Origin: Parcubacteria group bacterium Gr01-1014_20
GTDB taxonomy: Bacteria > Patescibacteriota > Minisyncoccia > UBA6257 > 2-01-FULL-56-20
DNA: 36,748 nucleotides
Assembly (NCBI GenBank): GCA_007376265.1
Contig: VMFW01000013.1
Location: forward strand, 1 to 36,748
Direction of reading: 5' to 3'
Below, one piece after another: positions 20,030 through 22,227 of the stretch. The notes below the pieces were generated by a model. The model saw nothing but the letters and a program-made list of their open reading frames with translations, was not told the origin of the DNA and made no database searches. Numbering within the stretch: position 1 is the first letter of the stretch; each line of letters opens with the position of its first letter. The translations under genes and the position numbers were made by a program.

Positions 20030-20941
20030 ATGACAAAAAAACTAATTATCGGGGCGGTAATTGTAGTCCTAGTGGGGGTCGGGGCGTATTTCCTCTTTCG
20101 AAATTCATCTAAAGATGTAGTTATAATCCCGGGGGACGAGAGTGGGGCAACCGGCACCGATCAGCCACCCACGGGTGGAACACCCGGGGTGGTGGATAAA
20201 ACTAAAACCGTGATCGGCCAATCCGCCGGTGGTCGCGACATCCTCGCGTATCACTACGGCGAAGGCGCGAAAGAGATTTTGTTTGTCGGTGGCATCCACG
20301 GCGGGTATGAGTGGAACACCGCGCTCGTGGCTTACGAGATGATGGATTTCTTGAAAATGAATCCGACCGCAATTGCGAGCGGCACGAAAGTGACCGTCAT
20401 TCCAGTCTTGAATCCCGATGGTCTTGCGAAAGTGGTTAGCTCAACCGGAAAATTTGCGAAAGCCGACGTCAACACCTCTCAGACCGTTCAAGTCTCCGGC
20501 CGTTTCAATGGAAACAACGTGGACCTAAATCGCAACTTTGACTGCGACTGGCAGACCAAAGCCGTCTGGCAGGACAAAACCGTGAGCGGAGGCAGCGCGG
20601 CTTTTTCCGAGCCTGAAGCCCAAGCGATCAAAACCTATGTCGAAACCAAGCGACCCGTAGCGGCCGTGGTTTGGAACAGCTCGGCAAACGGCGTGTTTGC
20701 TTCTAACTGTCACGCTGGAGTTTTGCCAGAGACGCTCACGATCGCGAACGTATATGGTAAGGCCTCTGGTTATAAAGTGTACAAGGAGTTTAATTTTTAT
20801 GAGATCACTGGAGACATGGTCAACTGGCTGGCTAAGCAGGGGATTCCGGCCATTAGCGTCTTGCTGGCGACCCACGAAGACACCGACTGGACCAAGAACG
20901 AAGCCGGCATTAAAGCTCTTCTAAGTCATTACGCCAAATAA
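20030..20941 (+). CDS. Membrane-anchored M14 family zinc carboxypeptidase
   Basis: GGIHGGYEWN (HxxE), RFNGNNVDLNRNFDCDW, ATHEDTDW; N-terminal TM. Confidence 0.85.
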   Translation: MTKKLIIGAVIVVLVGVGAYFLFRNSSKDVVIIPGDESGATGTDQPPTGGTPGVVDKTKTVIGQSAGGRDILAYHYGEGAKEILFVGGIHGGYEWNTALVAYEMMDFLKMNPTAIASGTKVTVIPVLNPDGLAKVVSSTGKFAKADVNTSQTVQVSGRFNGNNVDLNRNFDCDWQTKAVWQDKTVSGGSAAFSEPEAQAIKTYVETKRPVAAVVWNSSANGVFASNCHAGVLPETLTIANVYGKASGYKVYKEFNFYEITGDMVNWLAKQGIPAISVLLATHEDTDWTKNEAGIKALLSHYAK

Positions 20942-21819
20942 TGGGGATTATTTTTGAGAAGCGAACTCTCGCGGCCACGATTAGTGTTGCCGTACTGGTC
21001 CTCGGTTTAATTTTGTTTTTTGTCTTCAAAGGCGGTAACCCACCGGCGCCACCGGTAGAACCAGCTGCGGCAACCCTCAAACAAGAAACGATTGGTTTCT
21101 CGGTGGAGGGGCGGAAGATCGAGGCTTACACCTACGGGACTGGTGAGACGCGTCTCTTATTGGTCGGTGGTATCCACGGCGGGTATGAATGGAATAGTGT
21201 GATCTTGGCCTATGAGTTTATGGATTACTTAGACCAGACCTCCGGCACTATTTCTAAGAGTTTGGCGGTAACAGTGATTCCGTCGGCCAACCCTGACGGG
21301 GTTTTTAAAGTGATTGGTAAAGAAGGACGCTTTGCAATTGGGGGTGTGCCGACGTCGCAGTCTCTTCAGGTCTCCGGTCGGTTTAACGCGAATAAAGTGG
21401 ACTTGAATCGGAACTTTGACTGCAGGTGGAAACCGGAGGGTGTCTGGCGGGGGAACAAGGTGAGCGCCGGCTCGAAAGCCTTTTCAGAACCGGAAGCGGT
21501 AGCCATCCGAGATTTTGTTTTGAAAATTCGGCCAGTGGCCGTGGTCTTTTGGCACAGTCAGGCCAACGCCGTCTACGCCTCCGAGTGCGAAGACGGAATC
21601 CTCCCGGAAACCCGGGCAATTCTGAACACCTACTCGCGTGCAGCCGGCTATCCAGCGGTAGACAGTTTTGACGCGTATGTAGTGACGGGCGCGGCGGAAG
21701 ATTGGCTGGCTTCGATCGGCATTCCGGCCATCTCGGTTGAGCTTAAAACCCACGAAGCAATCGAGTGGGAAAAGAATTTGGCCGGCATCAAAGCGCTTTT
21801 TACACACTACGCAAAATAA
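20941..21819 (+). CDS. Membrane-anchored M14 family zinc carboxypeptidase, tandem paralog
   Basis: GGIHGGYEWN, RFNANKVDLNRNFDC, KTHEAIEW; TAATG overlap with the preceding gene. Confidence 0.85.
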   Translation: MGIIFEKRTLAATISVAVLVLGLILFFVFKGGNPPAPPVEPAAATLKQETIGFSVEGRKIEAYTYGTGETRLLLVGGIHGGYEWNSVILAYEFMDYLDQTSGTISKSLAVTVIPSANPDGVFKVIGKEGRFAIGGVPTSQSLQVSGRFNANKVDLNRNFDCRWKPEGVWRGNKVSAGSKAFSEPEAVAIRDFVLKIRPVAVVFWHSQANAVYASECEDGILPETRAILNTYSRAAGYPAVDSFDAYVVTGAAEDWLASIGIPAISVELKTHEAIEWEKNLAGIKALFTHYAK

Positions 21820-21863
21820 CAAAAAGGAGAATAATTCCCATTAGCGCGAATTTTGTTCTCTCC

Positions 21864-21901
21864 ACAATACTCCAACATTCTTGAGAATGTTGGAGTATTG
21901 T
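21864..21901. repeat. Long palindrome (18-bp arms), probable operator
   Basis: ACAATACTCCAACATTCT-TG-AGAATGTTGGAGTATTGT. Confidence 0.9.
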
Positions 21902-21909
21902 AGTACAAT
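21881..21909 (+). promoter_or_regulatory. Promoter with -35 at the palindrome centre
   Basis: TTGAGA (21881-21886), N17, TACAAT (21904-21909), ATG at 21916. Confidence 0.75.
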
Positions 21910-21915
21910 ATATCG

Positions 21916-22182
21916 ATGAAAACCTCAAAACAGCTAGAGAGGCACCTGAAAGGCGTAGCCAATCATTATCGAATCGAAATTCTTCTTACGGTTTCAAAGA
22001 ATCCCAGCATAACACTCGAAGGAATGGTCGAGGAGTTAGACGGTAATATGAAAACTTTTTCAGAGCATACCCGAAGGTTGGTTCAGGCCGGCTTGCTCAA
22101 CAAAAAATACCATGGTCGCAACGTCATCCACTCACTATCTCCCTATGGAGAAATTTTCGTTAAATTTATCAAAAACTTCTGA
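21916..22182 (+). CDS. ArsR-like winged-helix transcriptional regulator, 88 aa
   Basis: LKGVANHYRIEILLTVSKNPSITLEGMVEELDGNMKTFSEHTRRLVQAGLLNKKYHGRNVIHSLSPYGE. Confidence 0.75.
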   Translation: MKTSKQLERHLKGVANHYRIEILLTVSKNPSITLEGMVEELDGNMKTFSEHTRRLVQAGLLNKKYHGRNVIHSLSPYGEIFVKFIKNF

Positions 22183-22183
22183 G

Positions 22184-22227
22184 ATTACAACAATCCAACA
22201 TTCTCAAGAATGTTGGATTGTTGTAAT
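22184..22227. repeat. Long palindrome (21-bp arms) between regulator and engB
   Basis: ATTACAACAATCCAACATTCT-CA-AGAATGTTGGATTGTTGTAAT. Confidence 0.9.

What the first reader, a model, noticed from the sequence alone, without database searches (positions are those of the whole stretch)
21864..22227. ArsR-like regulator gene bracketed by two long palindromes with reverse-complementary 24-bp cores, directly upstream of engB
Upstream palindrome: ACAATACTCCAACATTCT-TG-AGAATGTTGGAGTATTGT (21864-21901). Downstream palindrome: ATTACAACAATCCAACATTCT-CA-AGAATGTTGGATTGTTGTAAT (22184-22227), starting 2 nt after the regulator stop. The 24-bp cores TCCAACATTCTTGAGAATGTTGGA and TCCAACATTCTCAAGAATGTTGGA are exact reverse complements. 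The -35 hexamer TTGAGA (21881-21886) lies at the centre of the first palindrome, 17 nt from TACAAT, so binding would block the promoter. The second sits between the regulator and engB. This suggests autorepression plus control of a ribosome-assembly GTPase; alternatively the bracketed gene could be a mobile mini-cassette with inverted ends.
Basis: partly seen in the sequence, partly recalled or inferred. Interest (0 to 1): 0.72.

Follow-up and report, generated by a model that had tools for sequence, protein, structure and literature searches.

The report
Palindrome-bracketed regulator gene that moves
A tiny gene for a DNA-binding protein, framed on both sides by copies of the palindrome it probably binds, behaves as a self-contained ~365-base mobile unit found throughout the ultra-small Patescibacteria, and lone copies of its palindrome are scattered over their genomes, even inside working genes.

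Summary
In detail: an 88-aa ArsR-fold winged-helix gene (21916-22182) sits between two long palindromes, far beyond chance. The main interpretation (control of engB) fails; the alternative (a mobile cassette) is the better one. At least 236 homologues exist, nearly all in Patescibacteria MAGs, and most are bracketed alike: one palindrome over the -35 region, one that usually supplies the stop codon. DNA similarity between cassettes in unrelated contexts ends at the outer palindrome edges. Two ~85%-related genomes show palindrome-gene-palindrome versus a lone palindrome at the same junction, with the cassette elsewhere in the second. Lone palindromes are not promoter operators: no -10 enrichment, more convergent than divergent sites, and 19 of 109 lie inside ORFs of 250 aa or more, read nearly always as HSNIL(Q/E/K)NV(G/R)M, as Rickettsia palindromic elements are read in frame. 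Palindromes and protein co-occur strongly (p~4e-14 and 2e-10); residues that vary with the site lie in the recognition helix and wing; the protein is under purifying selection. No transposase is encoded and no target duplication was found, so how the unit moves is unknown. Autorepression is likely; engB is an incidental neighbour.

The parts
21862..22227 (+). Whole cassette: palindrome - promoter - winged-helix gene - palindrome
   Evidence: In relatives DNA similarity between cassettes begins about 17-20 bp outside the upstream palindrome centre and ends 14-20 bp outside the downstream centre.
21864..21901 (.). Upstream palindrome ACAATACTCCAACATTCT-TG-AGAATGTTGGAGTATTGT, probable operator of its own gene
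   Evidence: same position in most homologues.
21881..21909 (+). Promoter: -35 TTGAGA (21881-21886) at the palindrome centre, 17 nt, -10 TACAAT (21904-21909); probable leaderless start
   Evidence: -10 enrichment at this spacing over the family.
21916..22182 (+). 88-aa ArsR-fold winged-helix protein (no cysteines, no catalytic domain)
   Evidence: purifying selection in homologues.
22184..22227 (.). Downstream palindrome ATTACAACAATCCAACATTCT-CA-AGAATGTTGGATTGTTGTAAT, right end of the cassette; in many relatives it supplies the stop codon
22242..22814 (+). engB (yihA) GTPase gene: neighbour, not part of the cassette
   Evidence: adjacency not found in relatives.

Best explanation
The feature is a minimal mobile cassette of Patescibacteria: a ~38-bp palindrome, a promoter, an 88-aa ArsR-fold winged-helix protein, and a second ~38-bp palindrome. 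Each palindrome consists of four 8-bp half-sites (ACATTCYA-ACATTCTN and their mirror image) and is most likely the binding site of the encoded protein. The upstream copy covers the -35 region, so the protein probably represses its own gene. The cassette changes place as one unit with the palindromes as its ends, and lone palindromes, including those in frame inside genes, are footprints, solo remnants or separately copied ends. Shown here: the conserved bracket, the sharp ends, the patchy and horizontal distribution, occupied versus lone-palindrome alleles at one junction, dispersed lone palindromes that are not promoter elements, one-frame presence in genes, and selection on the protein. Inferred: DNA binding, autorepression, and any role of the protein in bringing the ends together. 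Unknown: the enzyme that cuts and joins. No catalytic domain is encoded, so a host or trans-acting recombinase, or recombination between palindromes (each is at once a direct and an inverted repeat of the other), would have to supply it.
For: Bracket: of 77 loci with enough flank, strict palindromes upstream in 49, downstream in 56, both in 41, background 0.27 per kb, and in most of 29 relatives' loci read one by one. Ends: among 92 non-collinear pairs similarity starts and stops at the outer palindrome edges; L146/L147 92% over 339 bp with no shared flank. Alleles: L148 versus L149, site 1 and site 2. Horizontal and patchy: 75-78% identity to other lineages, no close homologue in the two same-genus genomes, 16 of 379 genomes in many families. 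Co-occurrence of protein and palindrome p=4.5e-14 and 1.6e-10. Lone palindromes not promoters and found in genes. Site-protein co-variation in recognition helix and wing. dN/dS 0.04-0.15. ArsR fold.
Against: Movement was not observed; there is one clear allelic case (L148/L149), its direction is inferred and site 2 is too diverged for an exact empty site. No catalytic gene, no target-site duplication and no mobilising enzyme found. Sharp similarity ends could partly reflect selection on gene and operators while neutral flanks decay. The site-protein co-variation rests mainly on one clade. Some neighbours recur (tspO downstream in 9 of about 100), which a freely moving unit would not predict.
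Confidence: 0.63

Rival explanations
1. An ordinary autoregulated ArsR-type repressor whose regulon consists of genes near the palindromes, engB among them; lone palindromes are its operators.
For: The upstream palindrome covers the -35 and a -10 follows at a fixed spacing in the family. In this genome two lone palindromes lie about 40 nt upstream of genes (NUDIX, small membrane protein). tspO recurs downstream of cassettes (9 of about 100).
Against: Lone palindromes lack -10 boxes (35 of 109, shuffles 46+-4.5), convergent 15 versus divergent 7, 19 inside long ORFs; as many genes have their 3' end as their 5' end at a lone palindrome (70 vs 55). Lone palindromes persist in genomes without a close homologue of the protein (e.g. 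G001, G067). engB adjacency not found elsewhere.
Confidence: 0.12
2. The palindromes are MITE/REP-like repeats spread by an unrelated enzyme (for example a Y1/HUH transposase), and the winged-helix gene is a passenger, or a repressor captured between two copies.
For: Architecture like REPtrons (coding sequence bordered by palindromes, PMC8266576). Y1 transposases are mildly associated with palindromes (11 of 30 versus 12 of 71 genomes, p=0.04).
Against: 19 of 30 palindrome-bearing genomes lack a detectable Y1 transposase; no GTAG tag at the palindromes (3 of 256). A passenger would not be bracketed in nearly every homologue, co-vary with the site, or stay under strong purifying selection.
Confidence: 0.18
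3. The palindromes act as RNA hairpins: terminators or 3'-end stabilisers of mRNA, with no link to mobility.
For: Strong predicted hairpins (z-scores -6.6 and -7.4); many lie just after stop codons or in convergent gaps.
Against: Neither palindrome is picked as a terminator-like site (no T-run). Presence inside genes; co-occurrence and co-variation with a DNA-binding protein. Symmetry ends at about +-19 bp with fixed half-sites, as expected of a protein site.
Confidence: 0.04

Closest known systems
Rickettsia palindromic elements (RPE)
   Same: Dispersed palindromic repeats, intergenic and in frame inside genes of conserved proteins, read so as to give a conserved peptide (PMC10969869, PMC2229807).
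   Different: RPEs are 105-150 bp; this palindrome is about 38 bp, unrelated in sequence (not aligned here, judged from length and consensus), in another phylum, and tied to a gene that it brackets. I know of no gene tied to RPEs.
REP/BIME repeats with RAYT (TnpA-REP), 'REPtrons' and REPINs
   Same: A coding sequence bordered by the palindromes that are dispersed through the genome; presumed movement through the gene product (PMC8266576, PMC3116915).
   Different: The gene is a winged-helix protein without HUH/Tyr catalytic motif; no GTAG tag; copies per genome about 1-10 instead of hundreds.
ArsR/SmtB autorepressors (CzrA, CadC, SdpR family)
   Same: Fold and probable autorepression over an operator at the promoter.
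   Different: No cysteine ligands, sequence below all family cut-offs, operator of four half-sites, and a second operator-like palindrome at the stop codon.
MITEs and integron cassettes
   Same: Small unit with inverted-repeat ends without its own catalytic gene; solo and full alleles differ by gene plus one palindrome, as cassette plus one attC would.
   Different: No target-site duplication, no parent transposon with these ends found, no integrase or array; the carried gene is always the same regulator.

Membership tests
ArsR/SmtB transcription factors | ArsR winged-helix fold | tested here: met
   AlphaFold pLDDT 93; Foldseek TM 0.76-0.90 to 3cuo, CzrA, CadC, SmtB.
ArsR/SmtB transcription factors | Curated profile score above cut-off | tested here: not met
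   HTH_20 19.8 bits (cut-off 27), HTH_5 16.3 (22), NF033788 31.6 (55).
ArsR/SmtB transcription factors | Metal-binding cysteines (metalloregulators only) | tested here: not met
   The 88-aa protein has no cysteine.
ArsR/SmtB transcription factors | Binds a palindromic operator and represses | not testable with these tools
   Geometry only.
REP/RAYT (REPtron) | Y1 HUH transposase between the palindromes | tested here: not met
   The only gene is a winged-helix protein; Y1 absent from 19 of 30 palindrome genomes.
REP/RAYT (REPtron) | GTAG tetranucleotide next to the palindrome | tested here: not met
   GTAG in 3 of 256 outer flanks as tested.
Rickettsia palindromic elements | Palindrome inside protein genes, translated in a preferred frame | tested here: met
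   22 in-gene sites in ORFs of 200 aa or more, 18 read as HSNIL(Q/E/K)NV(G/R)M.
Rickettsia palindromic elements | Length of about 105-150 bp and Rickettsia origin | tested here: not met
   About 38 bp, Patescibacteria.
MITE / DNA transposon | Target-site duplication | tested here: not met
   No enriched direct repeat at cassette edges over 74 cassettes.
Mobile element in general | Same unit at different sites with sharp ends; occupied and unoccupied alleles | tested here: met
   one clear allelic case.
Mobile element in general | Observed movement | not testable with these tools
   Needs culture or strain-level long-read data.

The most novel reading that the evidence does not exclude
A winged-helix DNA-binding protein with no nuclease domain is itself the driver of a mobile element and of an RPE-like spread of its binding site, by synapsing or folding palindromes so that host replication or recombination copies them. 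It would be among the smallest gene-bearing mobile units and the first gene tied to gene-invading palindromes.
Probability: 0.3. Interest if true: 0.87.

Novelty: new variant of a known kind. Interest (0 to 1): 0.64.

Why it matters
How short palindromes that invade protein-coding genes (such as the Rickettsia elements) spread has stayed open; a review read here states that transposase-driven movement is hypothesised without experimental support (PMC2229807). Here such a repeat is physically and statistically tied to a gene, so the question becomes testable: express the 88-aa protein, test binding to the 38-bp palindrome, and look for excision or transfer. It also suggests that streamlined Patescibacteria genomes carry an unnoticed mobile family that alters tRNA-modification and other enzymes. 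No earlier description was found in the papers searched.

Tried and rejected
engB regulation: rejected on patchy engB and unshared context. Regulon of lone palindromes: rejected on -10, orientation and in-gene tests. Y1/RAYT mobilisation: tested, not required. REP tag GTAG: absent. Target-site duplication: none. Long extra outer arms as a separate hairpin feature: symmetry falls to background beyond +-20 bp, so the longer arms seen by eye are mostly chance. Viral origin: the 25 viral-contig hits to the 18-mer have no extended arms and look like chance; no match to the protein in 50,697 phage or 72,556 plasmid records. Homogeneity of the central dinucleotide within genomes as proof of copying: set aside, because it also seems to follow protein clade. 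Looking for a third allele in relatives of the L148 genome failed (handle not accepted).

Full report
WHAT IS THERE. The core with up to three mismatches occurs only at these two places in the window, against 0 expected. A sigma-70-like promoter has its -35 at the centre of the first palindrome and its -10 six bases before the ATG. The protein has no cysteine. Its AlphaFold model (pLDDT 93, pTM 0.82) is an ArsR/SmtB winged helix with recognition helix 45-57 and wing 61-74, while sequence profiles stay below their cut-offs. Two genomes of its family have contigs whose lengths and match positions fit records named Candidatus Liptonbacteria (G004:C19, 40217 bases; G022:C6, 87312 bases), so it is a Patescibacterium of that neighbourhood.

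THE PALINDROME IS DISPERSED. The own genome has five cores: the two here, one between a histidine-kinase and a NUDIX gene, one at the end of a CYTH-domain gene, and one inside the miaA ORF (these gene names are my reading of the sequences). The protein has no close paralogue in the genome. In 101 genomes (this one and relatives), 30 carry the core and 37 a homologue at E of 0.001 or better; counting homologues at E of 1e-15 or better (30 genomes), 25 are shared (Fisher p=4.5e-14). In an even sample of 379 genomes of the phylum the figures are 21, 16 and 10 shared (p=1.6e-10). The reversed-pattern control gave almost nothing. Cassette copies contribute to both sides of these counts, so the association partly restates the bracket.

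THE BRACKET IS THE FAMILY'S HALLMARK. A scan of genome contigs found 236 relatives; the 79 loci kept are almost all titled as Patescibacteria lineages or unnamed bacteria. Of 77 loci with enough flank, 49 have a strict palindrome upstream, 56 downstream and 41 both, against a background of 0.27 such palindromes per kb; many of the rest show an imperfect one by eye. The downstream palindrome is part of the gene: the stop codon lies 1, 10, 18 or 21 nt before its centre in most cassettes, so C-termini such as ...TFQHS-stop are read from it. Over 256 palindromes symmetry holds to about +-19 bp and then falls to background, with tandem 8-bp half-sites (these palindromes were chosen for symmetry over the inner 12 bp, so only the outer positions are an independent test). 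Divergent homologues have divergent palindromes, and the residues that best track the ACATTC/ACATCC difference are 49, 45, 69 and 56, in the recognition helix and wing. That correlation rests largely on one clade (tree), so it is suggestive rather than independent proof. The protein is under purifying selection (dN/dS 0.04-0.15 in seven close pairs; an eighth pair was not in register).

IT IS A UNIT THAT CHANGES PLACE. Among 92 non-collinear pairs of cassettes (73-92% identical) DNA similarity begins at a median of 17 bp outside the upstream centre and ends 14 bp outside the downstream centre. L146 and L147, from different MAG lineages, are 92% identical over 339 bp and share no more of the flank that is held (little for L147). 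Most neighbouring genes are not shared: 122 of 197 are singletons. The window's protein is closer to homologues in other lineages (75-78%) than to the best one of its own family (64%), and it has no close homologue in the two same-genus genomes. In G001 the tandem M14 peptidase genes to the left are syntenic, but neither cassette nor engB follows them. The best single case is L148 versus L149, about 85% identical: ASCH - site 1 - MsrB - site 2. L149 has the full cassette at site 1 and nothing recognisable at site 2; L148 has one palindrome at site 1 and the full cassette at site 2. The lone palindrome matches the left one of the full allele and is followed directly by the right flank, so the alleles differ by gene plus one palindrome. 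In L148 the lone palindrome and the cassette's left palindrome are nearly identical, which fits departure from site 1 leaving a palindrome behind. The direction is inferred; insertion into a pre-existing palindrome is also possible.

LONE PALINDROMES ARE NOT A REGULON. Of 109 lone palindromes, 35 have a -10-like box in the right window, fewer than the 46+-4.5 of shuffles, whereas 52 of 74 cassette-upstream palindromes do (26+-3.6 expected). Contexts: 46 tandem, 15 convergent, 7 divergent, 19 inside ORFs of 250 aa or more, 7 inside shorter ORFs, 15 too near a locus end (genes here are simple longest-ORF calls). Genes lie with their 3' end at a lone palindrome at least as often as with their 5' end (70 vs 55). 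Inside genes the palindrome is read as HSNIL(Q/E/K)NV(G/R)M in 18 of 22 cases (16 by the script, two more by eye): at two different places in MnmA, in the variable linker of MiaA (present in G000, G002 and G017, not seen in G001), in TspO and in an O-antigen-ligase-like protein. This is the behaviour described for Rickettsia palindromic elements (PMC10969869, PMC2229807).

HOW IT MAY WORK. Most likely the protein binds each palindrome as two dimers and represses its own promoter. As each palindrome is its own reverse complement, the two ends of the cassette are both direct and inverted repeats, so a crossover between them would release gene plus one palindrome and leave one behind, and re-entry at any palindrome would rebuild the bracket; this matches the L148/L149 alleles. 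What makes new lone palindromes at fresh places, for example inside miaA, is not explained by that scheme. No nuclease is encoded, Y1 transposases are present in only 11 of 30 palindrome-bearing genomes, and no GTAG tag and no target duplication were found. The enzyme is therefore unknown, and the share of the protein in movement is conjecture.

VERDICT.

Noticed in passing
L050, L163, L166, L176, L202, L209, L217, L224, L225, downstream of the cassette: A tspO-like gene is the next gene downstream, same strand, in 9 of about 100 cassettes, from both palindrome clades; in some of them and in L045 tspO itself contains a palindrome. More than a random neighbour would give; regulation, shared ancestry or an insertion hot spot.
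   Followed up: partly
L022, L026, L044, L124, L171, L182 (mnmA): Palindromes inside mnmA at two different positions in different lineages; mnmA is also a downstream neighbour of cassettes. Together with miaA, two tRNA-modification enzymes are hit repeatedly.
   Followed up: partly
L115 1553-1586 and 1606-1641: Two palindromes of different subtypes (ACATTC type and CTATTC type) lie 20 nt apart inside one ORF that resembles RNase HII.
   Followed up: no
L148/L149 sites 1; outer flanks of 74 cassettes: The left outer flank is C-rich and the right one G-rich 24-27 nt from the palindrome centre (e.g. CCCCTT...): a possible target preference or further end motif.
   Followed up: partly
L225 (IMGVR_UViG_3300025323_000435): The only viral-contig homologue; the contig end carries terminase-like and methylase-like genes, a transposase-like gene, then the cassette and tspO: probably a prophage border with host DNA.
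   Followed up: partly
window 20030-21819: Two tandem M14 carboxypeptidase-like genes (54% identical), conserved in order in the same-genus genome G001; the stretch after them (cassette, engB, small ORFs up to about 24130) is replaced there by other genes.
   Followed up: yes
L149 record JAGXTF010000025.1: A MAG titled Bacteroidetes carries the cassette and genes about 85% identical in DNA to a Paceibacterota MAG, so it is probably mislabelled or contaminated.
   Followed up: no
L159, L168, L216 (between a ThpR-like and a MurC-like gene): The same intergenic site holds cassettes of different palindrome types in related genomes, as if the site were reoccupied or converted.
   Followed up: partly
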